From positions 1-25,592 of IMG/VR virus record IMGVR_UViG_3300025655_000258: a DNA stretch of 25,592 nt; one strand, 5' to 3'. The translations under genes were made by a program, and so were the position numbers. This document shows positions 9,327 through 25,011 of the stretch, piece by piece (the stretch's first letter is position 1; every line of letters begins with the position of its first letter). Under the pieces are notes generated by a model. That model saw only the letters and a list, made by a program, of their open reading frames with translations. It had not been told where the DNA came from and ran no database searches. This stretch comes from a virus.

Positions 9327-9772
9327 TAGTATATATCAGTTATCTGAGAATTAACAGTAAAAGATCCACGAAGAATTGCTTTGTGAATGTCCAATCCAGT
9401 ATTACTTGGTTTAATGTATTTTATGTCATATATATACGAGCCTGGTCGTATCTTACTCATAGTCTCAGCGGAAGCCTCAAGAGTTACATTTCCACTATCA
9501 TCAAGAATCGGTGACTCAAAGGACACAGCGTTCTCAATCTCACCTTTAGTAAGGCCAGGCGTCTGCAATATGACCTTACCCTCATCAGCAGATCTGGTTC
9601 TACCAACGCGATTTACCTCTTTGATCTGAATATGGAAAGTGTAACCATCAGTAACAAGTGGCAGGGCTGTGCCAGAGGAATCTTTCATGGTTAGGGTCAT
9701 AGAGAACGTATCACCTTCTCTACAGGTGATATTTAAAGTCTCTGTTGTATCAAAATTTACTGTCTGAGCCAT
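9326..9772 (-). CDS. Baseplate/fibre-attachment beta protein, 148 aa
   Basis: All-beta 148-aa protein: EGDTFSMTLTMKDSSGTALPLVTDGYTFHIQIK, then ETMSKIRPGSYIYDIKYI and a last strand ILRGSFTV. This strand layout, in which an Ig-like domain holds a substrate-modifying or fibre-linking module, is like BppU/YDFR-type N-terminal tail domains in other phages. It lies between the portal and the collagen-like fibre and overlaps the fibre start by TAATG. A probable adaptor connecting the fibre to the tail or portal vertex; family membership is inferred from pattern alone. Confidence 0.6.
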   Translation of the reverse strand: MAQTVNFDTTETLNITCREGDTFSMTLTMKDSSGTALPLVTDGYTFHIQIKEVNRVGRTRSADEGKVILQTPGLTKGEIENAVSFESPILDDSGNVTLEASAETMSKIRPGSYIYDIKYIKPSNTGLDIHKAILRGSFTVNSQITDIY

Positions 9773-12207
9773 TATCCTTTAAATATTTCATCCATCAATC
9801 CCGTCATGGGTTCTTGAACCTCATCTCTTTTTCCCTGTCTTTGAGATATAAGTTTACTTTGATCTGCTGTTTGTTTTCCAAGGCGGTCATCCTTTCTGTC
9901 CTCTTTAAGAACCTCAAGCTTTTCTTTAAATGCCTGATCATCTTCCTTGAAACCGAGAGTAGCCTTTGCTTTAATCATCTCAATTTCTTTTCTAAACTCG
10001 TGCCTGATTTGCTCAAGCTGTGCCTCCATCTGGTTCTTTAGCTTCATCTTTTCCATCTCAACCTGAGCCTCCGCTTGGAGCTCTTGCATTCTAAGCTGCG
10101 ATGCATTTTGAGCAGCCTCCATAGCCTCTTGCTTTTGAATCTGAGAATTTTGTTGAGCCATCTCGCTCATCCGTTGCATCCTCTTCTTTCTTCTAACAAT
10201 AAGGAGTCTTTCTGCTTGGTTTACATCTTTGAGTTGTCTAATTGCGATGGCGTCCTCAAGATCTATTTCTTTCTGCTGAAGTGCCATTTGTACATTTTGC
10301 TCAAGATACATCTTGTCTTTTTCCTCCATATCCTTTACAACAAGAACTCCAAAATTGAACATAGGGAGTTCCGAAAAAGACGAAAGTGCATCCATATTCT
10401 CCTTACCAATGGCCCTTACATAAGATCCATAAATAACAGATTCCTGAGGGAGGATTTGAATACATTTTACTATATCTTGACAAACCTTCTTGAACAGAAT
10501 CATAGAAGCGTTTGTGATGTCGTAAGTAGCATTATTAGACGCCTGTATAGCCTGCTCCCTTACACCAACCAAAGAATCCGATTTTGGTGTTGAAGCATCA
10601 ACAACTTCGTTAATTCCAGTGGTGTCTCTAATGAGCCTTAAGTAGTGATTATACAAACCAATAAGCTCATTAATGTTCCTTATATTGTTACTTATCTCCC
10701 TAACGGGCGGGTTTTGAAAACCACCTTCTGGATTCTTGCTCCTGTAATAGAACACACCAGTCTGTTCATAAATATCATGAAGATCGAGAGGCTGAAGCTC
10801 ACCCCCCTTTCCTAGCTGAACATTTTCAAGACCCTCAATATCTATAATCAACCCATCTGGCTTTGCTTTAGCTATAGCCTGCTGAATCTTAAGGTGCGTA
10901 AGCTGAAGCATATCAGCAAATCCGATGCAGCTATCAACCATAGACTTCGGAATCATATCCGTAAGATTGGTAGCAACTGCTGAATAAGAAAGAGACGCTT
11001 GTGAGATATCGTGAATGTTTTTAGGGATATTCTTTTTCTTTCCGTAGTCAAAAAGAAGTCCAGCATCTAGAACATAGCTCCCACCATAGACCACCTTAAC
11101 GTCCATGCTGTGTGGGCGACGCTCATAAACGGATCCCTTTTGTGGCTTGTAGTCAAGTCCCTTATAAAAAAAGTTGAAGTTACCGTGCCTGTTTTCTTTC
11201 TCTTCGAAGTGCATGGTTTCAACAGTCAAAAATTCAAAGTCAAGAACGTTTACTGAATACTCATCGTATCCATAACTCATTCTATTGAGACCTTGATCAT
11301 ATGACTTTGTACTGTACTTGCTGGAATCATTCCCATTCTTACCTTTTACTTTTGTAGCAATTTTTTCAAGGTCCTCTTCGGAAAGTTGATTGCCAGCAAG
11401 TCTTCTCAGCTCTGCAATAGAAATCTTTTTTATATGACCAGCATAGTTTAGATCATTCATACCGAAGTCTTCGGTATAGCTGTGTATAAACAAAGATGGA
11501 TCTACATATGATACCTTGATGCCCTGGTTCGGATCGTTAGATCTTTTTACAACCGACATGCCAAGATTGACAAGGTCATTTACGCATCTCCTAAAGACGC
11601 CGTCGTTAAAGTTGTTCCAGGAAAGGGTTAAGTTCGTTGCAATCTGGGCAGCAACCTCACCGCCAGTCTTTATATTTTCCCCGTACAAAACATCGGCCTC
11701 TTCTTGGCTGTCTGGTAATGAATTTGGATCTTGACCAAACGTCATACCAGTGTTCTCTTTGAATTTTTTTAAAAGATCTTTGTTGGCAACCTGAGCCATC
11801 AGAAATCTTTTTTGATTATTCTTCTCTGAATTAGATAGAGGATCAATAGCCTCAAGATTTGGGTATGGATCTCTAGATAGGATTTTATTTACTACAATTC
11901 GAACAAACTTTGGCAATATGGGTACTGGGGTGTAGTCTAAATTCATAAGACTACCATCACCACTGTTCGGGTCCATAGTGTTTAGTAGCTGCTTGTAAAT
12001 GTTGGTATCTTGAGCACCAACAGCATACTTTCTGCTTCTGTCAAAGATTCTGTTCCTTTTTGCAATAAGGCTCCCAGAGTCAGTCATTCTCCCCCACTGG
12101 GAGTCTATGGCTTTGGCATATTGTATGCCATACGCTTTTGACGCCTTTTCTTCTTGGGGTGCTAAAGGATCTGGGAATCCCTTACTCGTACCTTTTGTAT
12201 CTTGCAT
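9772..12207 (-). CDS. Portal protein
   Basis: The 811-aa protein follows the large terminase directly, as portals do. The N-terminal half has portal-like features: PILPKFVRIVVNKILSRDPYPNLEA, DPSLFIHSYTEDFGMNDLNYAGHIKKISIAELRRL, and a long middle helix-rich segment with DTTGINEVVDASTPKSDSLVGVREQAIQASNNAT, which resembles the portal stem/clip helices. From about residue 630 to 785 the sequence is almost entirely Gln/Glu/Lys/Met-rich coiled coil. That makes it longer than ordinary portals, as in crAss-like and other Bacteroidetes phages. It forms the dodecameric DNA gate and the motor dock. A TATATTTG box lies 26 nt upstream of the ATG. Confidence 0.85.
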   Translation of the reverse strand: MQDTKGTSKGFPDPLAPQEEKASKAYGIQYAKAIDSQWGRMTDSGSLIAKRNRIFDRSRKYAVGAQDTNIYKQLLNTMDPNSGDGSLMNLDYTPVPILPKFVRIVVNKILSRDPYPNLEAIDPLSNSEKNNQKRFLMAQVANKDLLKKFKENTGMTFGQDPNSLPDSQEEADVLYGENIKTGGEVAAQIATNLTLSWNNFNDGVFRRCVNDLVNLGMSVVKRSNDPNQGIKVSYVDPSLFIHSYTEDFGMNDLNYAGHIKKISIAELRRLAGNQLSEEDLEKIATKVKGKNGNDSSKYSTKSYDQGLNRMSYGYDEYSVNVLDFEFLTVETMHFEEKENRHGNFNFFYKGLDYKPQKGSVYERRPHSMDVKVVYGGSYVLDAGLLFDYGKKKNIPKNIHDISQASLSYSAVATNLTDMIPKSMVDSCIGFADMLQLTHLKIQQAIAKAKPDGLIIDIEGLENVQLGKGGELQPLDLHDIYEQTGVFYYRSKNPEGGFQNPPVREISNNIRNINELIGLYNHYLRLIRDTTGINEVVDASTPKSDSLVGVREQAIQASNNATYDITNASMILFKKVCQDIVKCIQILPQESVIYGSYVRAIGKENMDALSSFSELPMFNFGVLVVKDMEEKDKMYLEQNVQMALQQKEIDLEDAIAIRQLKDVNQAERLLIVRRKKRMQRMSEMAQQNSQIQKQEAMEAAQNASQLRMQELQAEAQVEMEKMKLKNQMEAQLEQIRHEFRKEIEMIKAKATLGFKEDDQAFKEKLEVLKEDRKDDRLGKQTADQSKLISQRQGKRDEVQEPMTGLMDEIFKG

Positions 12208-12246: not shown

Positions 12247-14361
12247 TCAGCCGATTACCCTATATCTCCTAAAAAACCTCTTCTCAGAGAAGTCTGACTG
12301 CGGCATTATTTTTTCCTTTTGAGCAGCCAATAAACAGAGTCCAGAGCTAATACTAAGGTCGTATTTTGTTCTGTTGTCAATTTTAAATCCGATCCAGTCC
12401 TCAAGGGTTCTATTGAAATACATTTTACCGTATTCACCAGAATCATGATTTATTCCAACGTGATCGTGTATGTACGCCTCAATAGAATGGGCGTGCGCAT
12501 GAATAACATCTTGAGAGTTTGATGGAATTCCCTTTGTTTTTACCTTTTGAGCTTGTGGGTTACTAGATAAGTGAGCTGGCCTACCTAATAAATAACCATC
12601 ATATCCTCTAGACTCAAAATATCTAGCGATACCGTATTTGTTATTTTCAATTAGTATTGGATACCCATAAAATACAGATGCCATAAGTACGTCTTCATAG
12701 AATATCTTGGCCAATGGGGGCCGAGAAGCATATTCCAAAACGAACATATTTGACGGATGCTGCATATTAAACTTATTGTATAAATGCATTGCGCCTTTAG
12801 ATCCCCTCCCATCTACTGTTGCGTCAAGATCATAAGAGTCAACACCACCAACCCCTAAATATGAATTTGGTGCAACTCTTTTATTTCTATCGAATTTTTT
12901 CTGATTTCTAAGTTCTTCTGGAGGCATCCAAGCAACATGGAATCTACCATTAGGATCTGGCTTAAATACAACATCAGTATCTTGATCACCGTTTTTCCAG
13001 TGAAAATTACCTACAACAACTGGATTTGGATAAAGCTCGTCGTTGTACTGAATTTGCTCATAGATTTTTGTAATGTTAAATAGGGTGCTTTGAACGCTAT
13101 CTCTAAAAGCTTCGTCGGTGGTAAATGGAAACTGCCTTATAACCTCATTAAGTTCTGACGGGTCGTCAATAAGACCCTGTCTTTCGTTTTTAAGGTATGA
13201 CTTTGCCCCGATAAGAATATTCTCACCATCAATACCCTCCAATGGGGATTCTGGATCATTTACAATTGCTCTTCCGTGCCTATCAAAAAATCCTTCTAGA
13301 GCCTCGTATGCTGGTATAAATAGTCGATATAGTCCGCTTCTAGTCCTCCCATTCGCGTTCCTCTCTGATGGGTTCGAATCCCCCCATAAATCCTTGTATT
13401 CTTTTCCGCCCTTGTCCATTGGATTTACGGTGCTTCCCACCATGGCCTTTCCGACTACTTTTCGACCGACGATCAAACAGGTCCGTTGAATCCTCCAAGC
13501 GTCCCTTATGTCTGTAGGTTTTTCCCATTTTCCTGCCTCATCTAAATAAAGCAAATGTAGCTTTTCGCCATCATATGCATTGTTTGTTGTGTTTTTCCAG
13601 TTAATTACCGTATTAAGAGCCTCGCCCGTCTGCGAAGTCTTATTTTTCTTCGTGATTCTCTTACTCGGCTCGCGAAAAGCCAGCTCCATGCGTGGGTTAG
13701 TGGTACCATCTTGAATGGGTTTAAAGAAGAAGGGGTAATGTCGAAACATGTACACCACCTTCTTCATAAATATATTTTCCTGCGCGTCTTTACCAGTTTT
13801 TGACTGTATTCCAAGCAGCTTATCCTTAATCTGCGTGGCCTCATCAACAATGATAGAAGAACATATGTTAGTGTATCCAGAACGGCGACACTTAGTATAA
13901 AGCTGCCCGATACAACGGGGATCAGCCTCACACGCGGCCATATGTATAAAAATTTCGCGTTGAAATGCAAGATAAGAAGGATATCCTATATCCATTCTCG
14001 TCCACTGAAGCATCATGTAATGCCTGCCCGTAATATATGTAGGGACACCGTCATTATAAAACCAAAAGCCCTCACGCCTACGGCGAAATTCCTCCTCGAT
14101 ATATGGAGAAAACTTTTGTCTGAACTCCCTTGGCATCTCACCCCACTCATCCATAGAACGAACCCTAGACAGCTCCTCTGGCATAGGTTTCCTCGACCAC
14201 AGCTGCATGTTGTTTGGGAGTCCATATCCTTCAATCTCCTTTTTGGGAGGCTGAGCGGGAAGTAAAATGAGTATCCCACCGAGCTCAAGAACCTCACCTT
14301 TCGTACCCTTGGGGCAAATTGAGATAGCAGGCTCATCGTAGTCATCTACCTTGACCAGCAT
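12247..14361 (-). CDS. terL: Terminase large subunit
   Basis: The 704-aa protein has both halves of a packaging motor. In the ATPase part, the Walker A position is a deviant CRRSGYT at residues 158-164, where terminases keep a basic-R-x-G pattern, and Walker B is LLYLDEA at 270-276, with Asp-Glu for magnesium and catalysis. A coupling-motif-like GSTVNP lies at 309-314. In the RNase H-like nuclease part, GGVDSYDLDAT around 506-515 supplies the first catalytic Asp, and a His-rich VIHAHAHSIEAYIHDH segment lies further on. The product pumps DNA through the portal and cuts concatemers. No separate small terminase was recognised with certainty. The start overlaps the 43-aa gene before it by 20 nt. 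Confidence 0.93.
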   Translation of the reverse strand: MLVKVDDYDEPAISICPKGTKGEVLELGGILILLPAQPPKKEIEGYGLPNNMQLWSRKPMPEELSRVRSMDEWGEMPREFRQKFSPYIEEEFRRRREGFWFYNDGVPTYITGRHYMMLQWTRMDIGYPSYLAFQREIFIHMAACEADPRCIGQLYTKCRRSGYTNICSSIIVDEATQIKDKLLGIQSKTGKDAQENIFMKKVVYMFRHYPFFFKPIQDGTTNPRMELAFREPSKRITKKNKTSQTGEALNTVINWKNTTNNAYDGEKLHLLYLDEAGKWEKPTDIRDAWRIQRTCLIVGRKVVGKAMVGSTVNPMDKGGKEYKDLWGDSNPSERNANGRTRSGLYRLFIPAYEALEGFFDRHGRAIVNDPESPLEGIDGENILIGAKSYLKNERQGLIDDPSELNEVIRQFPFTTDEAFRDSVQSTLFNITKIYEQIQYNDELYPNPVVVGNFHWKNGDQDTDVVFKPDPNGRFHVAWMPPEELRNQKKFDRNKRVAPNSYLGVGGVDSYDLDATVDGRGSKGAMHLYNKFNMQHPSNMFVLEYASRPPLAKIFYEDVLMASVFYGYPILIENNKYGIARYFESRGYDGYLLGRPAHLSSNPQAQKVKTKGIPSNSQDVIHAHAHSIEAYIHDHVGINHDSGEYGKMYFNRTLEDWIGFKIDNRTKYDLSISSGLCLLAAQKEKIMPQSDFSEKRFFRRYRVIG

Positions 14362-14560: not shown

Positions 14561-14572
14561 AGAGCGAATAAA

Positions 14573-14755: not shown

Positions 14756-14767
14756 GACGCTAATATA

Positions 14768-15762: not shown

Positions 15763-15766
15763 AATG

Positions 15767-15774: not shown

Positions 15775-15780
15775 ATTAAA

Positions 15781-15858: not shown

Positions 15859-15863
15859 ATATA

Positions 15864-16238: not shown

Positions 16239-16260
16239 GTGTTTTAATTCTGTGGCAATT

Positions 16261-16645: not shown

Positions 16646-17216
16646 ACATCAGGTCTATTACGCGAGTTCTGTAGTATTCTTCCCCGTCAATTTTGATGCG
16701 GTAGTCTCTATTTTCTTTAAACCCAACAACATCACCAACCTTAACTCCTAATTTATTAAGATCTTCAGACTCAAAGGCTACGACACCTTTTGTTGGGAGG
16801 GCATCTTTGAGAGAAACTACGTCAATAACGCTGTTTTTTGTGTCTTCTTTTTCTACTGGCAACAAGAGGCTCCATCCAGCCAATGGTGTTATTTTACCAT
16901 CTTTGTTTTTGTATGCAATGGCCTGATTGTTTGCTGCCTCTGATGGGTTGTAGTTTACAAAATAACTCTTGTCATTGCCAGTGAGTTTTTGACCTTCTTG
17001 CATAACCACAAGGTGATGAAAATACAGCGTGTCACCAACCTCAACATCTGTTTTATATTTTGCTGGTGTTGCAATAACTGGACCATCGGTAACTCTGTAT
17101 GCAAATTCTCCACCCTCAAAACGAGAGTCAATATATAGTTCCAATCCGCTGGCAGTGGAGATTGTATCGTTGATCGGCTTCTCAAGCTCAACGATAAACA
17201 TATTTAAGGATCTCAT
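16617..17216 (-). CDS. GroES-like co-chaperonin
   Basis: The 199-aa protein carries a Cpn10-type beta barrel: FIVELEKPINDTI at residues 7-19, EVGDTLYFHHLVVM around 59-72 (the VGDxVxF(H/K) strand), and a C-terminal repeat-like VGDVVGFKENRDYRIKIDGEEYYRTRVIDLMYVEEE. That final piece, in which the message 'K.DG.EYYR.R..D.M' closes the barrel, is typical of phage GroES homologues such as T4 gp31-like co-chaperonins. They cap host GroEL, enlarge its cage and help fold the capsid protein. It is about twice the length of bacterial GroES, so contains an insertion or an extra domain. The start overlaps the 49-aa gene as ATGA. Confidence 0.72.
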   Translation of the reverse strand: MRSLNMFIVELEKPINDTISTASGLELYIDSRFEGGEFAYRVTDGPVIATPAKYKTDVEVGDTLYFHHLVVMQEGQKLTGNDKSYFVNYNPSEAANNQAIAYKNKDGKITPLAGWSLLLPVEKEDTKNSVIDVVSLKDALPTKGVVAFESEDLNKLGVKVGDVVGFKENRDYRIKIDGEEYYRTRVIDLMYVEEEIHNN

Positions 17217-17362
17217 TTCTTATAAGGGAACATCTCGTTTAGCTTCTCTTTTCTCTTATCGCATCCGCAGTCACTAGACATCCTCTCTACAAGCTTTTTA
17301 AGACCAGTTGTTTTGGTGATTTTTTCAATGCTATCACCAAGCCCTTTTGATTTTTCAGACAT
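17213..17362 (-). CDS. Small conserved phage protein, 49 aa
   Basis: The ORF from ATG 17362 to TGA 17213 has KGLGDSIEKITKTTGLKK and then DCGCDKRKEKLNEMFPYKK. This GLGD.IEKIT..TG..K...........CGC..R...LN..FPY pattern is a small family that I recognise from marine phage genomes, usually in this neighbourhood. Cys-Gly-Cys suggests metal binding with another Cys elsewhere or a redox turn. Function is unknown. Its stop overlaps the co-chaperonin start. Confidence 0.75.
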   Translation of the reverse strand: MSEKSKGLGDSIEKITKTTGLKKLVERMSSDCGCDKRKEKLNEMFPYKK

Positions 17363-17364
17363 GA

Positions 17365-17604
17365 TTAAAAATTTAAATCAAATTCGATAATGCACGGCAT
17401 ATCGTCTACAACCTTCCACATTACGTTGCTACCATCTTCTTCCTGAAGGTATACAATGTATCTGTTTTTACCGTGTCTATAAAGAAATGCTTCATCAACA
17501 ACAATTGCGCTTACATTGCTGCTTCCAGCTCTCATGCCGACATAATACGCCATGGCGTCCTTGGGATCCCTCCCAATAATAATTTTTCTAATAACACCTT
17601 CCAT
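17365..17604 (-). CDS. Small phage protein, 79 aa
   Basis: Beta-rich 79-aa protein: VIRKIIIGRDPKDAMAYYVGM, then YRHGKNRYIVYLQEEDGSNVMWKVVDDMPCIIEFDLNF. The layout KI.IG.D..DAM.Y.VG ... Y.VY....G....WK......P..IE(F/Y)D.. resembles a small conserved marine-phage protein of unknown role. It begins in a leader directly after the 101-aa gene and is 2 nt from the next gene. The genes 17213-17910 form a set of small accessory products around the co-chaperonin. Confidence 0.68.
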   Translation of the reverse strand: MEGVIRKIIIGRDPKDAMAYYVGMRAGSSNVSAIVVDEAFLYRHGKNRYIVYLQEEDGSNVMWKVVDDMPCIIEFDLNF

Positions 17605-17910
17605 TTAATTCAAGCTTATGCCAAGTCCTTGGATCAGATCATCAATATCTAAATCGTCTTCCTTGTAAGATTCGTTTGCAAAGTTAAATAATTCATTTAA
17701 CTCTTCTCTGTTTCGCAAATTGTATCCCCATATAGCCTTAAGCTGCTGATTGTCTTCATCAATATCATCGATAAGGCCTATTATCATAAGGGACATCAGA
17801 TCATCTCTAACACCATATTCATCAATTAAGTCCTCAATTTTAAGTGCTATTTTTTGAATCTCAAACAGAAAACCATCTCTACTCATATCTTTGTATTTAT
17901 CTAAATCCAT
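17605..17910 (-). CDS. Small acidic protein, 101 aa
   Basis: I prefer ATG 17910 (MDLDKYKDMSRDGFLFEIQK), which lies about 60 nt after a minus-strand TATCTTTG box. A TTG 60 nt upstream at 17970 would extend the protein by 20 residues but would be one base from that box. The protein is acidic and helical, ending NFANESYKEDDLDIDDLIQGLGISLN. No family is recognised. Its 5' region overlaps and opposes the plus-strand winged-helix gene, so each gene's promoter lies inside or near the other's start. A regulatory antisense relation is possible. Confidence 0.6.
   Translation of the reverse strand: MDLDKYKDMSRDGFLFEIQKIALKIEDLIDEYGVRDDLMSLMIIGLIDDIDEDNQQLKAIWGYNLRNREELNELFNFANESYKEDDLDIDDLIQGLGISLN
17886..17893 (+). 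promoter_or_regulatory. -7 promoter box of the winged-helix gene
   Basis: Plus-strand TATCTTTG matches TAnnTTTG and lies 21 nt before ATG 17915. It is located inside the first codons of the opposing minus-strand gene. Confidence 0.55.
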
Positions 17911-17914
17911 TTTA

Positions 17915-18346
17915 ATGCCTAAAAGTGTGGTTTCTAAAAGAAAACTCTTTAGAGAGTTTTCGAAGCTCAATCAAAGATACGTAAAACGTAACTACCTAAA
18001 GCACCTTAGGAGAGAACTGCTTAAAACAAAAGATAGCCACTCTATCTTTCAAAAGGAAATAATGTTCATGCTGTGGGCGTACGATCTTGAATTTTTCACC
18101 CTTAAGTACGCATCTGATGACTTTGGTATAAGCAGCAAAAAAATTGGTGTGGAATATGTATACCCGTTAGTAAAGGAGGGGTTGATATACAAACACTTTG
18201 ATAAGCTTACCCCGTCGGATTCTAGAGAAGATCATCTCTTTAGAGATGAGACGAAATTTAACTACAGAGTAAGATATGCGCTAACACAGCGCGGTAGAAT
18301 TATAGTCCAGCAGATATACAGAAACCTAGAGGGAGAATCTATTTAA
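17915..18346 (+). CDS. Winged-helix regulator, 143 aa
   Basis: The only plus-strand gene in the left 22 kb. After a basic N-terminus (MPKSVVSKRKLFREFSKLNQRYVKRNY) comes a winged-helix pattern: FQKEIMFMLWAYDLEFFTLKYASDDFGISSKKIGVEYVYPLVKEGLIYKHFD, where the FGISSKKIG...YPLVKEGLI run fits recognition helix then wing. A YALTQRGRIIVQQIYRNLEGE tail is the MarR/PadR-type 'T..G....' ending. It probably binds DNA and controls phage genes, perhaps by acting on the opposing promoter. ATG 17915 is used; a TTG 24 nt upstream is in frame. It ends in a 4-bp overlap with the convergent endolysin. Confidence 0.75.
   Translation: MPKSVVSKRKLFREFSKLNQRYVKRNYLKHLRRELLKTKDSHSIFQKEIMFMLWAYDLEFFTLKYASDDFGISSKKIGVEYVYPLVKEGLIYKHFDKLTPSDSREDHLFRDETKFNYRVRYALTQRGRIIVQQIYRNLEGESI
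17972..17979 (-). promoter_or_regulatory. -7 promoter box for genes from 17910 leftwards
   Basis: Minus-strand TATCTTTG lies within the coding region of the opposing winged-helix gene. It would start a message with a 55-60 nt leader before ATG 17910, giving two interleaved divergent transcripts. Confidence 0.55.
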
Positions 18347-18822
18347 AGTCCTTTCCCGAAGATTGCTTCGTAATATACTTGGCCGTCATCATCTCTACAA
18401 GCCCTGAGACACCTTTTACGATTAACGCCATCGTAAACGTAAGAGACGTGAACCCAATCAGGATTGTCGTCATCACCAAACTCCCAAATGAGCTGATCAA
18501 ATTCCAGATTGTTCTTGATGTATTGGAATATCTGAGAATTTGTACAACCTCCGAATACGTCTGCGTCCAGATCAAGTGCTCTACCTTCCATGTGTTGGCT
18601 ACGAACCGAGCCTCTGACAGCAGCGTTGAGCTCAGGCGACCTATACCCGCTCGACACGTATATAGGACACTTGAAAGCGTCCCTAAGAGGTTGAAATACG
18701 TTGAGCGCAACTTGTCGAAGATTTTCCGTAGTCCAGTCATCGGGGGTGTTATCTATGCCTAAGCGCTTAGCTGTAATACTTTTAGTGACTTCCGATAAGG
18801 TTAAGTTCTTAGATAAATTCAT
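18343..18822 (-). CDS. M15-family peptidase endolysin
   Basis: The 159-aa protein has the full M15A/VanY-type zinc peptidase signature: SSGYRS at 57-62, SQHMEGRALDLDAD with zinc ligands His77 and Asp84, catalytic-type Glu in DQLIWEFG around 114, and the third zinc ligand His125 in DWVHVSYV. Such enzymes cut peptide cross-bridges in peptidoglycan (D-Ala or L-Ala-D-Glu type) and phages use them for lysis or, when virion-borne, for entry. No signal peptide or membrane segment is seen, so a holin or other export is needed. It is flanked by virion-type genes and overlaps the convergent winged-helix gene by 4 bp. Confidence 0.9.
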   Translation of the reverse strand: MNLSKNLTLSEVTKSITAKRLGIDNTPDDWTTENLRQVALNVFQPLRDAFKCPIYVSSGYRSPELNAAVRGSVRSQHMEGRALDLDADVFGGCTNSQIFQYIKNNLEFDQLIWEFGDDDNPDWVHVSYVYDGVNRKRCLRACRDDDGQVYYEAIFGKGL

Positions 18823-19217
18823 TAATCATATTTCGGAGTATTCTCAATCCTTCTGTTCAAGTTGTTCACCATTGCTTTGTGAATAGCTTTGCCAATGATT
18901 GTTTTGGCTGTTGCCTGACGGTTTCTGTGTCTAGCTCTTTTTCTAGAAAGGTCGGCATACTTATCGCTTATAGATCCCCCATCTTTATATTTAAGAGCTT
19001 TTTCTGTTTGCTGATTCACGAGGGAATCAAACATGTGCTTTTGAAGTTGCTCCTTATCCTTAGAGTATTTCTGTGCTATTGCAGCTTTCGCAACGTCTTT
19101 TGAGCTTTTTCCCTCATCAGCATTAGAAAGCTGGGCAAGAAGGTAATTGACATCCTTGCCCTTTCCTAGGCCTGGCCCAAATTTACCTCCGTCTGGATAT
19201 TTTTTTACTGATCTCAT
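18822..19217 (-). CDS. Basic virion-type protein, 131 aa
   Basis: I choose ATG 19217 (MRSVKKYPDGGKFGPGLGKGKD); a longer frame upstream would run into the preceding gene. It holds two YxDGG motifs (YPDGGKF near the N-terminus, YKDGGSI at about residue 90). These resemble the tyrosine-diglycine motif of other large virion proteins in crAss-like and marine Bacteroidetes phages, and the 627-aa gene upstream starts similarly (KYYNGGQN). The C-terminus is a basic helix (RKRARHRNRQATAKTIIGKA). Function is unknown; a virion protein delivered or packed with DNA is plausible. Confidence 0.65.
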   Translation of the reverse strand: MRSVKKYPDGGKFGPGLGKGKDVNYLLAQLSNADEGKSSKDVAKAAIAQKYSKDKEQLQKHMFDSLVNQQTEKALKYKDGGSISDKYADLSRKRARHRNRQATAKTIIGKAIHKAMVNNLNRRIENTPKYD

Positions 19218-19248
19218 AATACTTAAAATAGTCTGTTGTTTTAATGGT

Positions 19249-19719
19249 TTATTGACTCCACTGACCGCTTTTTCCTTTTTTAGCCTCGTTTCTACATGCA
19301 ATGTCTTTGCATTTCCCCCTAATCTTATCTCCAAGTGTTAGGTTTGGATTGCCAACCGACTTACTGTAGTTAGGCTTTCCACCACCTGGTTTAAGTTTTG
19401 TAAGTTTTATTTTTGGGAGCTTTATCTTTGGTAGATTTACCTCAGGGGTCTTTATAGTTTTCTTTTTACTTGGGTCAGATCCAGCTTTTTTTGCCTGAAA
19501 TGCGGCCTTTGACTCTTTCTTCTGAATTTTTCTTACCAGTCTTGCATTCCCAGCGTCTGCTGCTACAGACTGTGCTTTCGCAGATGTCGCGCCCTTGCCA
19601 GCTGTTTTCTCTACAACTCTTTTGAGTTGGTTTTCAGCACGGGAAAGTCTGCGCTGATTAGCTCCAGTGGTAGACCTAAATATGCGTCTATCTTCTTTTT
19701 CCTGATTTCTTACGGCCAT
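19249..19719 (-). CDS. Lys-rich repeat protein, 156 aa
   Basis: Strongly basic with a low-complexity repeat NLPKIKLPKIKLTKLKPGGGKP around residues 93-114, preceded by helix-forming Ala/Lys-rich sequence and followed by CKDIACRNEAKKGKSGQW. The two Cys could coordinate or crosslink. No family is recognised. It lies between the beta protein at 19734 and the YxDGG protein, so probably belongs to the virion set. The repeat may give extended KxKLPKIKL-type strands that bind acidic partners or DNA. Confidence 0.6.
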   Translation of the reverse strand: MAVRNQEKEDRRIFRSTTGANQRRLSRAENQLKRVVEKTAGKGATSAKAQSVAADAGNARLVRKIQKKESKAAFQAKKAGSDPSKKKTIKTPEVNLPKIKLPKIKLTKLKPGGGKPNYSKSVGNPNLTLGDKIRGKCKDIACRNEAKKGKSGQWSQ

Positions 19720-19733
19720 GGTATGTTGTTTGT

Positions 19734-20183
19734 TTAAGTGGCAACAGCAAATATTTCAATGTCTGCAGTCTCCCCACTAGTACCAGTAGCGTCGGCAGAA
19801 ATCTTTTCTATTTGAGAGAGTGATATTGTAGACCCTATGGCAGAAGAATCACAGTCTATTTTGTCATTAAACAGAATAAACGACTTTGACGCACCGATCT
19901 GAACAAAATATTCTTTCGTATTTGATGTGTCTTGTATGCGAAGATCTACAGTATTCGATGCATCGAGGTTCGTGATACGCAAGTACTGCATTGTTCCGTC
20001 TACCAAAGCACCCCCAGACGGGTTTGATGCCTGAAACTCTAAAATAGTTTGCTCGGCATTTGTAACGGTAAGAACCCTGTTAAATGTTTCAGTTACACTA
20101 TTAACCTCAACAACATTCTTGTTGCCACGATCCTTACCGTTAATCGTGATATCTTCTTGTATAGTTACTCTAAGTGTTGCCAT
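19734..20183 (-). CDS. Beta-sandwich virion protein, 149 aa (paralogue C)
   Basis: All-beta protein with the same layout as the two genes at 2871-3676: a first strand (MATLRVTIQEDI), a central pair LRITNLDASNTVDLRIQD then TKEYFVQIGASKSFILFND and a final strand ADIEIFAVAT. Paralogue A and B counterparts are the VYVKNMA.. and VYIKNTS.. segments. It starts 4 nt after a TATCTTTG box. A role as decoration or head/tail surface protein is likely because copies flank the capsid gene, but no family name is known to me. Confidence 0.65.
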   Translation of the reverse strand: MATLRVTIQEDITINGKDRGNKNVVEVNSVTETFNRVLTVTNAEQTILEFQASNPSGGALVDGTMQYLRITNLDASNTVDLRIQDTSNTKEYFVQIGASKSFILFNDKIDCDSSAIGSTISLSQIEKISADATGTSGETADIEIFAVAT

Positions 20184-20187
20184 GGCT

Positions 20188-20195
20188 CAAAGATA
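20188..20195 (-). promoter_or_regulatory. -7 promoter box with leaderless start
   Basis: Minus-strand TATCTTTG fits TAnnTTTG and is followed by 4 nt (AGCC) before ATG 20183. Confidence 0.6.
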
Positions 20196-20202
20196 CTAAA
20201 TG

Positions 20203-22086
20203 TTATTTTACCACTGCGAAGCCTGGCCTCCTGCGCTTTACAACTCTACCACCATTAGAATGGGTCATAGACTGCGGGTAACCGCGCTCTGTATAGTATG
20301 CCTGCCTGTGTGATATGGCTCTCAGCTTTACGTGGCCACCCTCGATAGACTCTACTATATACTTTTGATCTGGGTGAAGCAATACCTCCATCTCTGATGG
20401 ATATATTTCCATGCTGCCTAGCTGCGAAGGGTTGGCTACAGCCGTTCCTTCTGGTATGACGATCTCTAACTTTAGCTGCTCACCACCCACACCAGGTGTT
20501 CGTCTAGAGGTTTGCCTTGGTAGCTTGGCATGGAGAGACGTAGATACTGGTCGCGAAGATCGTGGCGATACCGAACTCACATCTTTTAATTCTTTTTGAG
20601 AAAGTGTTTCTACGATATCACCTACCTGATATTTATCTGGTGACCTCACATCCACAACCTCTCCATTTCTTATTACTCTGGTTGGTGTCAATCTCTGTGA
20701 TTGATTTCTAAATACAGTAAATTCCTTTAATGCTGTTGGCCACTCATCCATGGTGACTCTAGAAGATACTTTTTCAATAGTTGGGCCAGTTTGCCCTTGA
20801 GAATGCTTTACAAGAATTCTACGGGCTCTAAGCGTTGGTTCGCCACCGATAAGATCGTCAAACGGCGAGGTACTGTAGCCACTACCTAGCGGTAGCCTGG
20901 TCATAGCCAACTCTGAGTTTATTTTACTCATGCCATCAGCGCCATACAAAATCTCATCATCAAATTCCTGCCCCAAAGTAGAAAGCCTTCTATAGAGATC
21001 GTCTTGATTTCGAGTGACATCCATAGTGCGTTTCCATACATCACTTTGATACTTTTCAGTCCCGTACAGCATATCACTACCTCCAACGGTGCCACCGTGA
21101 CCAGGAGGTGGGAGGTTGATTTTTCTGAGGTAGTCGTCAGCAGTACTATGCGGGACTTTATTTGGGTTGGGGTACTTCCTTGCTTCTTTACCAATGACTT
21201 CAAGGTCTGATGTTAGCCTTCTAAGCGCATTGATTTGATCGGGTGTTAGGTCTTCAGCATTTTTTTTGATCAAAGAACGAAGAGACTCTGTAACGCCTTC
21301 ATCCATACCCTCCATGGCATAGATGATATCTTTTTGAATTTCTTCAGGTATAGACCTAAACTCAGGTGAGTTTGCATACCCGCTAAGAAGTGATGTATGC
21401 TTTTTCTGAAGGTCAATCCACCGTGGCATCAGGGATGGGTTGAGGTCAGACCTCATAACTTTATTAGCCAACCACTCTGGAAGGTTCTCATCAAGAACCT
21501 TTTTGTAGTCGATTACATCGGTCTCGGCATTCGACCATCTATCAACAGCTCTCGGCAATGGAGTTACATACTGGTCAATCTTATCCATCCCGTACTTCAC
21601 CGCCTTGTTTATAGCTGGTATGGCGTTGGTAACAGCCTCGGCACCTAGGTACTTAAAGGCATCCTTACCAATGGTCAACAGCCTTGACGCAAGGTAGTCT
21701 TCTAAAGCTGCAGCGGGTGTCCCGAATCCAGCGGCAGTGCTAAAGGCCACGTTTGCTGGTTGCGATGGGTTGTATGCTTCCGTGGCATACTCTTGGGCCT
21801 CTTCTCTAGATAGCGGTCGGTCTAGGTTCTCAAGGTATTCTCGCCTCTCGTCACTCATAAAGCCAACCTTCGTAGGGGTGTACTTCTCTGGGGCAGCTGC
21901 CTGCCGAGACTGTAAAAGTGCTGCTTGATTGGCCTCTTCAGCGCTAACTCTTAAAAGCTCACCGTTAGGTCCCTCCTTCCAGTTTCCGCTAGCAAGCATC
22001 CTTGCTTTAACCTCAGGTGGCCAGTTTTGACCCCCGTTGTAGTACTTTCTTACCCTTTTTAGGGGTTTTTTTGATACCGCCCTCAT
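20203..22086 (-). CDS. Virion-linked ADP-ribosyltransferase-like protein, 627 aa
   Basis: The N-terminal half is helical (YNGGQNWPPEVKARM motif early, long linker to about residue 330). From about 430 the sequence shows the R-S-E signature of mono-ADP-ribosyltransferases: a first strand FTVFRNQS with Arg460, PVSTSL (STS motif, residues 515-517) and the ARTT loop with YPSEMEVLL, giving Glu565-x-Glu567, followed by HPDQKYIVESIEGG. In the family, Arg binds NAD, the STS strand lines the pocket and the second Glu is catalytic. Such enzymes attach ADP-ribose to host proteins or RNA. The C-terminus carries a basic NGGRVVKRRRP tail. The start is 5 nt from a TATATTTG box. Catalytic activity is inferred. 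Confidence 0.75.
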   Translation of the reverse strand: MRAVSKKPLKRVRKYYNGGQNWPPEVKARMLASGNWKEGPNGELLRVSAEEANQAALLQSRQAAAPEKYTPTKVGFMSDERREYLENLDRPLSREEAQEYATEAYNPSQPANVAFSTAAGFGTPAAALEDYLASRLLTIGKDAFKYLGAEAVTNAIPAINKAVKYGMDKIDQYVTPLPRAVDRWSNAETDVIDYKKVLDENLPEWLANKVMRSDLNPSLMPRWIDLQKKHTSLLSGYANSPEFRSIPEEIQKDIIYAMEGMDEGVTESLRSLIKKNAEDLTPDQINALRRLTSDLEVIGKEARKYPNPNKVPHSTADDYLRKINLPPPGHGGTVGGSDMLYGTEKYQSDVWKRTMDVTRNQDDLYRRLSTLGQEFDDEILYGADGMSKINSELAMTRLPLGSGYSTSPFDDLIGGEPTLRARRILVKHSQGQTGPTIEKVSSRVTMDEWPTALKEFTVFRNQSQRLTPTRVIRNGEVVDVRSPDKYQVGDIVETLSQKELKDVSSVSPRSSRPVSTSLHAKLPRQTSRRTPGVGGEQLKLEIVIPEGTAVANPSQLGSMEIYPSEMEVLLHPDQKYIVESIEGGHVKLRAISHRQAYYTERGYPQSMTHSNGGRVVKRRRPGFAVVK

Positions 22087-22091
22087 AAGAG

Positions 22092-22099
22092 CAAATATA
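22092..22099 (-). promoter_or_regulatory. -7 promoter box before the ADP-ribosyltransferase-like gene
   Basis: Minus-strand TATATTTG followed by 5 nt (CTCTT) and the ATG at 22086. It overlaps the end of the preceding 43-aa gene. Confidence 0.65.
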
Positions 22100-22951: not shown

Positions 22952-22977
22952 TCAAACTTCAATCTTCATCTCCGATG
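22952..22977 (+). promoter_or_regulatory. Conserved translation leader, copy 1 (gene A)
   Basis: Leader TCAAACTTCAATC followed by TTCATC-TCC-GATGAA, a 6-bp hairpin containing the start ATG. The same unit precedes five more genes on this strand. No Shine-Dalgarno sequence is present, as is usual in Bacteroidetes. Confidence 0.7.
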
Positions 22978-23409
22978 AACAATTCAATCAAATCTACTGC
23001 GAAGCAGTACACCGTCAGTAGCAACGAAGTTGCTAAGTTCCTCAAATTCAACGGAGTCAAGCTGAAAGCTTGTCCAGCTACGGTCACTCTGACGGAGTCA
23101 GAGTTAGAACAAATCAAAGATTTGTTTTGGGAAGATGCTCCTTGGATTGGGGACTTGGTCGCTTACAGCGACTTGCTGTTTCTCCAAGAGAAACACTTGT
23201 CAGTTGACAAGTCAACTGGTGTCGTCTTCCTTGAAGACGAATGGTCAAACGATGGTGACTTGTACTGCGAAGCAGAACAAGAGTTCAAAGAGCTGTCAGC
23301 GAAGCTGTCAGCCTTTGGAATCGAAATTGTCGACGAAGTCGAAGAGTACCTCGAAGAGGTAAACGCTCTTCCCTTGGAAGAGAAACTCCGTCGGTTCAAG
23401 CACTGCTGA
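22975..23409 (+). CDS. Gene A: acidic protein of unknown function, 144 aa
   Basis: Acidic helical protein. The N-terminal 25 residues are polar and the rest has LEQIKDLFWEDAPWIGDLVAYSDLLFL and a Glu-rich end (VDEVEEYLEEVNALPLEEKLRRFKHC). No family is recognised. Its nucleotide sequence holds at least 15 perfect or near-perfect hairpins, most with 3-nt loops (for example TAGCAAC-GAA-GTTGCTA at 23019 and TCGTCTTC-CTT-GAAGACGA at 23222), together covering about half of the gene. The stop codon lies in the loop of ACTGCT-GAA-AGCAGT. Gene A starts the right-arm operon, probably transcribed from the promoter at 22927. Confidence 0.82.
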   Translation: MNNSIKSTAKQYTVSSNEVAKFLKFNGVKLKACPATVTLTESELEQIKDLFWEDAPWIGDLVAYSDLLFLQEKHLSVDKSTGVVFLEDEWSNDGDLYCEAEQEFKELSAKLSAFGIEIVDEVEEYLEEVNALPLEEKLRRFKHC

Positions 23410-23420
23410 AAGCAGTCTTT

Positions 23421-23447
23421 CAGACCCCCTTCGGGGGGTCTGTTTTT
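23421..23447 (+). terminator. UUCG terminator hairpin between genes A and B
   Basis: CAGACCCCC (23421-23429), loop TTCG, GGGGGTCTG (23434-23442), then TTTTT: a 9-bp GC-rich stem with the very stable UUCG loop and a U-tract. It looks like an intrinsic terminator. The next leader begins only about 6 nt later, with no promoter between, so partial readthrough or RNA processing must supply genes B to G. Confidence 0.75.
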
Positions 23448-23453
23448 CCCTTG

Positions 23454-23479
23454 TCAAACTTCAATCTTCATCTACGATG
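23454..23479 (+). promoter_or_regulatory. Conserved translation leader, copy 2 (gene B)
   Basis: TCAAACTTCAATC then TTCATC-TAC-GATGAA with ATG 23477 inside the 3' arm of the hairpin. It is almost identical to copies 1 and 6. Confidence 0.7.
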
Positions 23480-23665
23480 AACTACTTTCATTCAACCCTT
23501 GATTCTTCGAATCAGTCTAACAGCAGAGCTGTTACCAAGGAGCGTGTTCAAGCTCTGCTTGAATTGTTTTGGACTGCCAACCCTGAACTCTTGTTCCTTG
23601 ATGCGGAGTTCTGCGAACTCTCATCTGAGGAACAGGAGGCAATCATCAACGAGTTGATGGACTGA
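23477..23665 (+). CDS. Gene B: small acidic protein, 62 aa
   Basis: The 62-aa product begins MNYFHSTLDSSNQSNSRAV and ends LSSEEQEAIINELMD. It is helical, acidic at the end and has no recognised domain. It carries the right-arm hairpin pattern: TGATTC-TTC-GAATCA, TAACAGC-AGA-GCTGTTA, TTCAAGC-TCT-GCTTGAA and GAGTTC-TGC-GAACTC lie in a row. The start comes from the conserved leader. The stop is followed by a structured RNA element. The function cannot be inferred from sequence. Confidence 0.78.
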   Translation: MNYFHSTLDSSNQSNSRAVTKERVQALLELFWTANPELLFLDAEFCELSSEEQEAIINELMD

Positions 23666-23674
23666 CAAAAACTT

Positions 23675-23729
23675 TGGGGGAGTATCAGATACCCTGAGTT
23701 CTTACGAAGGGTATCAGATACGAACCCCA
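23675..23729 (+). ncRNA. Structured RNA element of unknown class, copy 1
   Basis: The RNA folds into one long hairpin: outer stem TGGGG/CCCCA, an internal loop GA against GAA, stem GTATC/GATAC, internal loop AG/CA, stem ATACCC/GGGTAT, a 4-nt bulge TGAG, stem TTC/GAA and loop TTAC. The apical TGAG-TTC-TTAC-GAA part and the GAA after the second stem are identical in the copy at 24611; the stems differ by compensatory pairs. It lies between genes B and C. It does not match a hammerhead, twister, pistol, hatchet or HDV-like core as I know them. Confidence 0.75.
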
Positions 23730-23741
23730 CCATTCAAATTC

Positions 23742-23772
23742 AAACTTCAATTTTCAAATTTCATTTCCAATG
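23742..23772 (+). promoter_or_regulatory. Conserved translation leader, copy 3 (gene C)
   Basis: AAACTTCAAT, then TTTCATT-TCC-AATGAAA, a 7-bp hairpin containing ATG 23770. The base pair next to the ATG is T-A where other copies have C-G, a compensatory change. Confidence 0.68.
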
Positions 23773-24414
23773 AAAAAGTCAACCAACCGAGTCGAACTGC
23801 TGAAAGCAGTTTCAGTTTCAGTCAATGAGTTCTACTTCTCACCGTCAACGGTGAGAAAAGGAAAGGCACGAAGTGCCATTCAAGACCTGCTCAACTTCGT
23901 TGAAGCAGTAGAGTTGCCGAAGGCAAAGCCAACCAATTCAAAGACATCTGACGAGCAGTCCCAAGGGACTGAACAAATGATGGAGTTGTTCAAGCAGTTC
24001 CTTGCCTTGCAAGGAATGACTCAAGAACAGCCGAAGGCTGAACCCCAACCGAAGGTTGCCAAGCCGAAGGCTACTAAGCCGAAGCGTCGTCGTAAGACGA
24101 CCACCAAGAAAGCTACTCCTCAGCAACGAGTTGCTGACAGACAAGAGAAAGCCTTCCACGGTCGCCCTGACACCCCCGTCACACCATGTCATACGAAAAA
24201 GACAGCTTCTGTTGAAGCTGCTCGGAAGTCAGCCCTTGCCGTTAGCGAAGCTAATGGAGCCGCCGATAGAATTAGAACGAAGGCTAATTCTCGAAAAGCA
24301 GAGCTTTTGAAGGCATTCCAAGCGAAGCTTGACTTGGAGTTTCCGTTGGATGGAACATCCAATGAAGTGAGTTTTGATGACCTCTCCCTTCGGGAGTTGG
24401 CCAAACTCTTCTGA
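23770..24414 (+). CDS. Gene C: protein with histone H1-like basic linker, 214 aa
   Basis: Residues 1-60 form a possible folded helical domain (LLKAVSVSVNEFYFSPSTVRKGKARSAIQDLLNFVEAVEL). From about 85 to 125 the sequence is Pro/Lys/Ala/Arg-rich (QPKVAKPKATKPKRRRKTTTKKATPQQR), resembling histone H1 or AlgP-type DNA-binding tails, and a second helical part ends LDLEFPLDGTSNEVSFDDLSLRELAKLF. The likely role is DNA or RNA binding or compaction. The gene includes very dense hairpins, many with GAA loops and PKA/PKV codons (for example GGCAC-GAA-GTGCC and CAACC-GAA-GGTTG). The basic region could be partly a by-product of hairpin repeats. Confidence 0.8.
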   Translation: MKKSTNRVELLKAVSVSVNEFYFSPSTVRKGKARSAIQDLLNFVEAVELPKAKPTNSKTSDEQSQGTEQMMELFKQFLALQGMTQEQPKAEPQPKVAKPKATKPKRRRKTTTKKATPQQRVADRQEKAFHGRPDTPVTPCHTKKTASVEAARKSALAVSEANGAADRIRTKANSRKAELLKAFQAKLDLEFPLDGTSNEVSFDDLSLRELAKLF

Positions 24415-24433
24415 TGTATGATGTCATATGATA

Positions 24434-24489
24434 GGCACACTGATGAGGCTTTGTTAGCCGAAACACCCCCTTCGGGGGGTGTCTGTGTC
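24434..24489 (+). ncRNA. Type I hammerhead ribozyme 1
   Basis: All invariant parts are present. Stem I GGCACA (24434-24439) pairs with TGTGTC (24484-24489). The core is CTGATGA (24440-24446), stem II GGCT/AGCC has loop TTGTT, then GAA (24460-24462) and A15.1, which pairs with U at 24482. Stem III CACCCCC/GGGGGTG is closed by a TTCG loop. The cleavage triplet is GUC with cutting after C24483. Stems II and III are loop-closed and stem I is open, which defines type I. It lies between genes C and D and its 3' product would begin UGUGUC, just 26 nt before the next start codon. Confidence 0.93.
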
Positions 24490-24512
24490 AAACTTCAAAT
24501 TCATTTTCAATG
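24489..24512 (+). promoter_or_regulatory. Conserved translation leader, copy 4 (gene D)
   Basis: CAAACTTCAAATT, then CATT-TTC-AATG, a 4-bp hairpin with ATG 24510 on its 3' arm. It follows directly from hammerhead 1, so after cleavage this is the new 5' end of the message. Confidence 0.68.
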
Positions 24513-24596
24513 GTACTTGACCTTGTGTTTTGGGTGGCTATGATGCCCGCAGCCCTGCTTATGATGTGGCTTGCATATGATGAGCTGACCGACTAA
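24510..24596 (+). CDS. Gene D: 28-aa predicted membrane peptide
   Basis: The ORF reads MVLDLVFWVAMMPAALLMMW and then LAYDELTD. The first 22 residues are continuously hydrophobic with Met and Trp, a likely single membrane helix, followed by an acidic C-terminal tail. It has the conserved leader and lies between the hammerhead and the next RNA element. Tiny phage membrane peptides often act as lysis helpers, holin-like or inhibitor peptides; no such function is shown here. It is flanked closely on both sides. Confidence 0.7.
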   Translation: MVLDLVFWVAMMPAALLMMWLAYDELTD

Positions 24597-24610
24597 CCGA
24601 CAACCTTGGG

Positions 24611-24666
24611 GGGTGAGTATATACACCCTGTGAGTTCTTACGAACAGGGTGATATACGAACCACCC
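24611..24666 (+). ncRNA. Structured RNA element of unknown class, copy 2
   Basis: Same plan as copy 1: outer stem GGGTG/CACCC, stem GTATAT/ATATAC, a bulged A, stem CACCCTG/CAGGGTG, then the identical TGAG-TTC-TTAC-GAA apical unit. Compared with copy 1, several base pairs differ on both sides and keep pairing, and the GAA after the GTAT..stem is retained. It lies between genes D and E, ending 24 nt before ATG 24691. A processing site, self-cleaving motif or protein-binding hairpin would fit; none is shown. Confidence 0.75.
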
Positions 24667-24675
24667 ATAAACCCT

Positions 24676-24693
24676 TCAAACTTCACTCCAATG
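24676..24693 (+). promoter_or_regulatory. Conserved translation leader, copy 5 (gene E)
   Basis: TTCAAACTTCACTCCAATG gives the leader core with ATG 24691, but the short hairpin of the other copies is not formed here, only the CAAACTTCA sequence is kept. Confidence 0.55.
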
Positions 24694-24924
24694 ACAAATT
24701 TATTTGAACAACCCGTAGGACGTTCCGTCCTTGTTCTCAATAACCTTCATTTCGGAAAGCATCTTGATGCTTTGAACAGGTGTGCAAGACTTGTTCCTGA
24801 TTACGTCAAGGGTTTTGCAACCCTTGTGGTAAGCACACCATATATGAATGATGTTGCGAAAGATGACGTCATACGTATGCTGATTGGTCTTGCCGATGAA
24901 GCAGACCCCGTAGAACACTGCTGA
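24691..24924 (+). CDS. Gene E: small protein, 77 aa
   Basis: ATG 24691 follows the leader; an in-frame GTG 42 nt upstream lies inside the RNA element and is not preferred. The product (MTNLFEQPVGRSVLVLN...) is mixed helical/strand, with a central FATLVVSTPYMNDVAKDDVIRMLIGLADE and it ends EHC. No family is recognised. It includes hairpins such as AAAGCAT-CTTG-ATGCTTT and CAAGGGTT-TTGC-AACCCTTG. The stop codon lies in the loop of CACTGCT-GAA-AGCAGTG, the same arrangement as in gene A. Together with gene D it lies on the fragment bounded by the two hammerheads. Confidence 0.75.
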   Translation: MTNLFEQPVGRSVLVLNNLHFGKHLDALNRCARLVPDYVKGFATLVVSTPYMNDVAKDDVIRMLIGLADEADPVEHC

Positions 24925-24934
24925 AAGCAGTGAA

Positions 24935-24988
24935 GGCACACTGATGAGTCCTGAATGGACGAAACACCACGAAAGTGGTGTCTGTGTC
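24935..24988 (+). ncRNA. Type I hammerhead ribozyme 2
   Basis: Stem I GGCACA (24935-24940) with TGTGTC (24983-24988), core CTGATGA (24941-24947), stem II GTCC/GGAC with loop TGAAT, GAA plus A15.1 (24961-24964), stem III CACCAC/GTGGTG with GAAA loop, U16.1 at 24981 and cleavage after C24982. Versus ribozyme 1, stem II is changed at two pairs and stem III shortened and changed with pairing kept, and the UUCG loop is replaced by GAAA. That is strong evidence for RNA-level selection. It lies between genes E and F. Confidence 0.94.
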
Positions 24989-25011
24989 AAACTTCAAATT
25001 CATCTACGATG
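24988..25011 (+). promoter_or_regulatory. Conserved translation leader, copy 6 (gene F)
   Basis: CAAACTTCAAATT followed by TCATC-TAC-GATGA, a 5-bp hairpin with ATG 25009 inside. It matches the sequence after hammerhead 1 up to CAAATTCAT. Confidence 0.68.

What the first reader, a model, noticed from the sequence alone, without database searches (positions are those of the whole stretch)
20203..22086. Putative ADP-ribosyltransferase on a large virion-side protein
The C-terminal 200 residues show Arg460 (FTVFRNQ), PVSTSL (515-517) and SEMEVLL (Glu565-x-Glu567), in the order of R-S-E type ADP-ribosyltransferases. The N-terminal half and the basic C-terminal tail look like virion proteins. As in T4 Alt, such a protein may be packed in the head and enter the host with DNA to modify RNA polymerase or to join RNA to protein. 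The location next to beta-sandwich and basic proteins supports this.
Basis: partly seen in the sequence, partly recalled or inferred. Interest (0 to 1): 0.68.

Follow-up and report, generated by a model that had tools for sequence, protein, structure and literature searches.

The report
Tagged ADP-ribosyltransferase cargo of a phage
A marine phage of Bacteroidota bacteria carries, among its late particle genes, a protein that very probably ends in an enzyme which attaches ADP-ribose to other molecules, mounted on a leader that related phages mount on quite different payloads, so it may be an exchangeable host-attacking cargo carried in the virus particle.

Summary
The motif is real. The 627-aa protein at 20203-22086(-) has STS (515-517) and E565-x-E567 in R-S-E order. 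Its C-terminal 198 aa match Pfam PF03496 (ADP-ribosyltransferase exoenzyme) at E=6e-5, 22.9 bits, just under the 23.4 cut-off. A search of solved structures by sequence lists Vip2 and C3 ARTs first, but only at E 0.2-0.5. The strict signature appears in 5 of 100,000 shuffles. Structure prediction did not settle the fold (pLDDT 39-40).

The gene starts the late operon of a podovirus related to Flavobacterium and Cellulophaga phages. It has the late box TATATTTGC and lies 6 kb upstream of terminase and portal. Its ~120-aa leader recurs in relatives with unrelated payloads: an HExxH protein (L091) and a 1131-1140-aa protein (L010, L088, L089). Both ends carry tags (N-terminal K-Y-x-x-GG, C-terminal GG-basic) that occur together in 10 variable late proteins and in none of 555 conserved genes.

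Best reading: an R-S-E mono-ART delivered as an exchangeable virion effector, working like T4 Alt on a different scaffold. Packaging and activity are inferred, not shown.

The parts
20203..22086 (-). 627-aa gene: leader + middle region + C-terminal R-S-E ART-like domain
   Evidence: PF03496 E=3e-4
22091..22099 (-). late-type box TATATTTGC, 5 nt before the ATG
   Evidence: 6 copies in the window, all on - strand, expected 0.18; in relatives TATATTTG 217 sense vs 14 antisense, commonly 4-5 nt before ATG
21715..22086 (-). leader, residues 1-124, shared with proteins of different payload
   Evidence: phmmer E 2.5e-36 (L091), 2.6e-20 (L010), 9.4e-20 (L088, L089); alignment
22030..22050 (-). N-terminal tag RKYYNGG (residues 13-19)
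   Evidence: tag in 46 of 431 variable late genes vs 4.9 expected, 0 of 555 conserved genes
20797..21714 (-). middle region, residues 125-430, no recognised domain
   Evidence: no Pfam family; no homologue in loci
20311..20796 (-). ART-like domain, residues 431-592
   Evidence: PF03496 6.2e-5; Vip2 and C3 ARTs head a weak PDB list
20707..20709 (-). R460, candidate catalytic Arg (VFRNQ)
   Evidence: sequence; strict signature
20668..20670 (-). R473, alternative catalytic Arg (VIRNG)
   Evidence: loose signature; in the first strand of the low-confidence model
20536..20544 (-). S-T-S, residues 515-517
   Evidence: inside the PF03496 match 514-583
20386..20394 (-). E-x-E, E565 and E567
   Evidence: same spacing of [FY]xSExE[VI]LLx5Yx[VI] as Vip2 in the alignment; motif pattern unique in the window
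20206..20265 (-). C-terminal tag THSNGGRVVKRRRPGFAVVK
   Evidence: GG-basic C-tag co-occurs with N-tag, Fisher p=3e-6
19734..20183 (-). 149-aa beta-rich protein, conserved next gene; marks the cargo locus
   Evidence: homologues in 32 loci (31 besides the window's own) whatever gene lies upstream
12247..14361 (-). terminase large subunit (phylogenetic anchor)
   Evidence: phrog_6681 E 8e-201
9772..12207 (-). portal protein
   Evidence: phrog_6547 E 7e-186

Best explanation
The gene makes a late-expressed cargo protein of a Bacteroidota podovirus. A conserved leader and short basic glycine-glycine tags at both ends most likely direct it into the particle, and the C-terminal 160 residues are an R-S-E (Alt/VIP2/C3-like, ExE) mono-ADP-ribosyltransferase. 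Ejected with the DNA, it would use host NAD+ to ADP-ribosylate host targets, probably on arginine, early in infection. Relatives carry other payloads on the same leader. Shown: motif and profile match, late gene position and box, shared leader with different payloads, tag statistics. Inferred: ART fold and activity, packaging, injection, target.
For: PF03496 at E 3e-4 and 6e-5; Vip2 and C3 ARTs among the top PDB sequence hits, E 0.2-0.5; strict signature in 5e-5 of shuffles; hhalign with a phage-ART profile P=0.0013 over the ExE half; that profile itself finds mainly ARTs in PDB, best Vis 1.4e-7. Late box, with a different motif before the divergent early genes. Same leader on unrelated payloads. 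Tags at both ends. Small basic proteins encoded upstream of terminase in Cellulophaga phage phi40:1 are MS-proven virion proteins. The literature finds 44% of phage ARTs in contexts that suggest packaging (PMC9503650).
Against: The PF03496 score is just below the curated cut-off. AlphaFold models are poor (pLDDT 39 and 40); the ART-like matches of the second (VIA Z up to 6.3) depend on an alignment built from ARTs, Foldseek itself gave nothing significant, and the single-sequence model gave none. The catalytic Arg is ambiguous. No orthologue of the ART region was found: none in 49 related records, phages, plasmids or IMG/VR. No direct proof of packaging; the tags are absent from the examined genes of the MS-studied relatives phi18:3 and phi40:1.
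Confidence: 0.5

Rival explanations
1. An active ART made late but not packaged: it modifies host or phage proteins in the producing cell, like T4 ModA/ModB in manner, or blocks superinfection.
For: The late box shows only when it is made. Packaging is not shown; the tags could serve something else.
Against: The leader and tags are shared by unrelated payloads, which fits a delivery scaffold better than cytosolic enzymes. T4 ModA and ModB carry no such leader (own knowledge).
Confidence: 0.2
2. A catalytically dead or purely structural ART-fold remnant in an ejection or internal virion protein.
For: Profile score just under the cut-off, ambiguous Arg, long stretch between R460 and STS, no orthologue found.
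Against: STS and both Glu of ExE are intact and correctly spaced.
Confidence: 0.1
3. A MuF/Bxa-like polymorphic toxin aimed at competing bacteria, with an immunity gene next to it.
For: Shared N-terminal domain with exchangeable C-terminal payloads in phages of Bacteroidota, as in Bxa (PMC11699363).
Against: No MuF domain. The next gene (149 aa) is conserved whatever the payload, so it is not a matched immunity protein. No integrase recognised in the window.
Confidence: 0.08
4. Chance resemblance; the C-terminus is not an ART.
For: Sub-threshold score, poor structure models.
Against: E-value 6e-5 corrected for the library, independent PDB ranking, signature shuffles.
Confidence: 0.08

Closest known systems
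Phage T4 Alt (head-packaged mono-ART, Alt/VIP2 group)
   Same: R-S-E active-site order, late gene in the virion module, proposed head cargo injected with DNA.
   Different: No match to any PHROG family; tagged leader, whereas T4 uses its own capsid-targeting sequence; podovirus of Bacteroidota; packaging unproved; one of several exchangeable payloads.
MuF-ART fusion proteins of phages, incl. Bacteroides Bxa (PMC11699363; PMC9503650)
   Same: ART at the C-terminus of a phage structural-module protein with exchangeable C-terminal domains.
   Different: No MuF domain; leader unrelated as far as tested; no matched immunity gene seen.
Polyvalent proteins of phages (Iyer 2017, PMC5512222)
   Same: Virion-side proteins mixing host-directed enzyme domains, incl. 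ARTs and zincin peptidases (cf. HEAQH in L091).
   Different: Polyvalent ARTs are of the H-Y-D (HYD2) clade; [quoted passage not shown] Only one recognisable effector domain here.
PhiCrAss001 capsid and tail cargo proteins (PMC10172136)
   Same: Bacteroidota podovirus that stores and ejects large cargo proteins.
   Different: Those are ejection and RNA-polymerase proteins; no homology was tested or claimed.

Membership tests
R-S-E ADP-ribosyltransferases (PF03496 / Alt-VIP2-C3 group) | S-T/S-S motif followed by E/Q-x-E at ART spacing | tested here: met
   S515-T516-S517 and E565-x-E567; aligned with Vip2 and PF03496 119-178
R-S-E ADP-ribosyltransferases (PF03496 / Alt-VIP2-C3 group) | Catalytic Arg in the first core strand | tested here: inconclusive
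   R460 and R473 both possible; PF03496 match does not reach this part
R-S-E ADP-ribosyltransferases (PF03496 / Alt-VIP2-C3 group) | Profile match above the curated cut-off | tested here: inconclusive
   22.9 bits vs 23.4, so just below the cut-off, at E 6.2e-5
R-S-E ADP-ribosyltransferases (PF03496 / Alt-VIP2-C3 group) | ART fold | tested here: inconclusive
   Models pLDDT 39/40; VIA second look mostly ART-fold chains, Z up to 6.3, but the MSA was ART-derived; single-sequence control none
R-S-E ADP-ribosyltransferases (PF03496 / Alt-VIP2-C3 group) | NAD-dependent ADP-ribosylation | not testable with these tools
   needs biochemistry
T4 Alt-type head-packaged ART | Late gene in the virion morphogenesis module | tested here: met
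   same strand and same upstream box as portal and other structural genes
T4 Alt-type head-packaged ART | Present in the head and injected | not testable with these tools
   no proteomics for this lineage
T4 Alt-type head-packaged ART | Detectable homology to Alt | tested here: not met
   no PHROG family at E<=0.1, no phage tblastn hit
MuF polymorphic toxins | N-terminal MuF domain | tested here: not met
   no MuF hit in Pfam at E<=10
MuF polymorphic toxins | Payload-matched immunity gene next door | tested here: inconclusive
   adjacent 149-aa gene is kept whatever the payload; the 156- and 170-aa ORFs further on are window-specific, basic and untested
Polyvalent proteins | Two or more effector domains in one polypeptide | tested here: inconclusive
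   only the ART-like domain is recognised; middle 300 aa unknown
Polyvalent proteins | ART of HYD2 type | tested here: not met
   R-S-E/ExE signature instead

The most novel reading that the evidence does not exclude
A lineage of marine Bacteroidota podoviruses uses a general tagging code (N-terminal basic-K-Y-x-x-GG plus C-terminal GG-basic, with or without a 120-aa leader) to load exchangeable enzymes into its virions; the ART is one of several interchangeable warheads.
Probability: 0.35. Interest if true: 0.68.

Novelty: new variant of a known kind. Interest (0 to 1): 0.47.

Why it matters
Head-packaged ARTs are known from T4 and as MuF fusions, but in the 2017 survey R-S-E (Alt/VIP2) ARTs were said not to occur in genuine polyvalent proteins. 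Here one seems to sit on another delivery scaffold, in a well-populated group of aquatic phages of Bacteroidota. The terminal tags, shared by unrelated variable late proteins and absent from conserved genes, give a concrete and testable candidate for a capsid-targeting signal, and would make unknown proteins of this lineage findable as likely injected effectors.

Tried and rejected
Orthologue searches with the full protein, the ART domain and ART alignments: none in IMG/VR, phages, plasmids or genome contigs. The leader was not found in genome contigs. PF03496 in 49 related records: only the window. A DNA pattern for the ExE motif gave five contigs, one a real ART, L093. AlphaFold: single sequence pLDDT 39, four-sequence alignment pLDDT 40, pTM 0.42; Foldseek against PDB nothing at E<=1e-3; VIA second look dominated by ARTs and the ART-like domain of anthrax lethal factor, but the input alignment was of ARTs, so I give it little weight. 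MAFFT places the Ser motif and the Arg differently depending on trimming, so the Arg was not decided by alignment. A literature search for the YXXGG motif in phages found nothing relevant. A conserved -33 box upstream of the late box was looked for and not seen.

Full report
What is there. The window is a whole IMG/VR record of 25,592 bases, by its gene content a fragment of a phage genome. The minus strand carries a structural module: terminase (phrog_6681, E 8e-201), portal (phrog_6547, E 7e-186) and a capsid-like protein (phrog_13704). Terminase relatives in named phages are Flavobacterium elemo phages (40%), a 60.9-kb podovirus MW202828 (48%) and Cellulophaga phages (34-36%), so the host is most likely a Bacteroidota. 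Eighty terminase relatives at 78-100% identity were fetched from IMG/VR. The reported gene, 20203-22086(-), is the first gene of the leftward late block.

The ART claim. Pfam finds only PF03496 (ADPrib_exo_Tox), residues 514-583, E 3e-4 for the whole protein and 6.2e-5, 22.9 bits against a cut-off of 23.4, for the C-terminal 198 aa. A sequence search of PDB gives seven weak hits, E 0.22-0.57; the first four are Vip2 chains and another is a C3-type ART; in the Vip2 alignments [FY]-x-S-E-x-E-[VI]-L-L-x5-Y matches column by column. The strict R/STS/ExE pattern occurs in 5e-5 of shuffles and in no other ORF of at least 150 aa in the set of loci used. A DNA pattern for the ExE motif led to a remote phage ART, L093/L097, and through it to L098 and L099. 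Read by eye (not tested), L098 also has a MuF-type head-protein part before its ART. Hits of the same query in named phages lie in genes annotated as minor capsid, minor head or head morphogenesis proteins. All three keep R, S-S and E-x-E, and their profile finds mainly ARTs in PDB. Profile comparison with the window domain aligned the ExE half at P 0.0013. I take the ART assignment as very likely on sequence grounds, not proved.

What structure could not settle. AlphaFold on the domain alone gave pLDDT 39. With the three remote ARTs as alignment it gave pLDDT 40 and pTM 0.42. Foldseek found nothing significant; the VIA second look listed mostly ARTs and the ART-like domain of anthrax lethal factor, best Z 6.3, rmsd 3.5 over 85 residues. 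Because the alignment came from ARTs, this is partly circular, and the single-sequence model gave no match. In the second model R473 lies in the first strand and R460 at the end of a helix, but the alignment favours that. ExE, rather than QxE, points to arginine as the acceptor; this is an inference from known ARTs.

Surroundings. Two upstream motifs divide the window. TATATTTGC occurs six times, only on the minus strand, before the ART gene, the portal gene, and the 76-, 99-, 133- and 311-aa genes (expected 0.18). In relatives TATATTTG occurs 217 times in sense and 14 times in antisense, with the ATG commonly 4-5 nt downstream. It fits the Bacteroidota -7 consensus TAnnTTTG (own knowledge). 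TCAAACTTCAA occurs five times, all on the plus strand at 22952-24997, among the divergent small genes (expected 0.04). I read these as late and early classes; the ART gene is in the late class.

A leader with different payloads. The first ~120 residues recur in L091 (63-65% identity, 559-575-aa protein whose later part holds HEAQH, an HExxH zinc-peptidase-like motif) and in L010, L088 and L089 (1131-1140 aa, another payload). In L010, L088 and L089 the gene lies just before the conserved 149-aa beta-rich gene, as in the window; in L091 it lies on the late side, next to genes with the early motif. Other relatives have unrelated proteins at this place. PF03496 is found in none of the other 49 records searched. 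The ART is thus a rare payload at a variable locus.

Terminal tags. Many of these proteins begin with a basic stretch and [KR]-[YF]-x-x-GG, and several end in GG-basic. The N-tag is in 46 of 431 variable late genes (4.9 expected from shuffled termini) and 0 of 555 conserved genes; the C-tag is in 19 (7.4 expected); both occur together in 10, Fisher p 3e-6. The pattern was defined after seeing examples and relatives are not independent, so the p-value is indicative only. In the window only the ART protein has both tags; a 131-aa neighbour at 18825-19217 also has the N-tag. What the tag binds is unknown.

How it most likely works. Made late, loaded into the prohead by its leader and tags, ejected with DNA, and then modifying host proteins early in the next infection. 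Shown: sequence motif, late-side box, shared leader, tag statistics. Inferred: fold, activity, packaging, injection, arginine target. In Cellulophaga phi40:1, mass spectrometry found small basic proteins encoded upstream of terminase in the virion, a parallel by position only. The tag was not seen in the examined phi18:3 and phi40:1 genes, so this inference stays open.

Comparison. T4 Alt is the functional model; head targeting and proteolytic processing of Alt are described in PMC9026906. Iyer et al. [quoted passage not shown] The later survey (PMC9503650) reports Alt/VIP2 ARTs fused to MuF and 44% of phage ARTs in packaging-like contexts. Bxa of Bacteroides (PMC11699363) is a MuF-ART with exchangeable payloads and immunity genes. 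The present protein lacks MuF, has no payload-matched immunity gene that I could see, and uses a different leader. It is a new variant of a known kind. Interest is moderate; it would rise if the tags prove to be a packaging code.

Noticed in passing
window 22952-24997 (+): TCAAACTTCAA lies shortly before the start of several divergent (early) genes, five copies; also in relatives L086, L091, L021. Likely an early promoter or leader signal.
   Followed up: partly
window 3697-22099 (-), and loci L004-L083: TATATTTGC box commonly 4-5 nt before the ATG of late genes, with no clear -33 box: near-leaderless late mRNAs.
   Followed up: partly
L091:3121-4845(+): Protein with the same leader but a later part with HEAQHFVD, an HExxH zinc-peptidase-like motif; no Pfam family above its cut-off.
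   Followed up: partly
L080:279-3842(+): 1188-aa cargo-locus protein with a Gly-zipper-like stretch and a weak match to P22 ejection protein gp7 (E 0.044).
   Followed up: no
window 5064-6350 (-): 428-aa RCC1-repeat protein among structural genes (PF25390 E 3e-11); homologue in only one of the fetched relatives, L037.
   Followed up: no
window 14486-14560 (-): A single tRNA-Arg(TCT) just upstream of terminase.
   Followed up: no
window 15864-16271 (-): Cys/His-rich ORF that reads like an HNH endonuclease (no profile run).
   Followed up: no
window 18343-18822 (-): 159-aa protein that reads like an M15-type peptidase (lysis gene), conserved in about 20 relatives.
   Followed up: no
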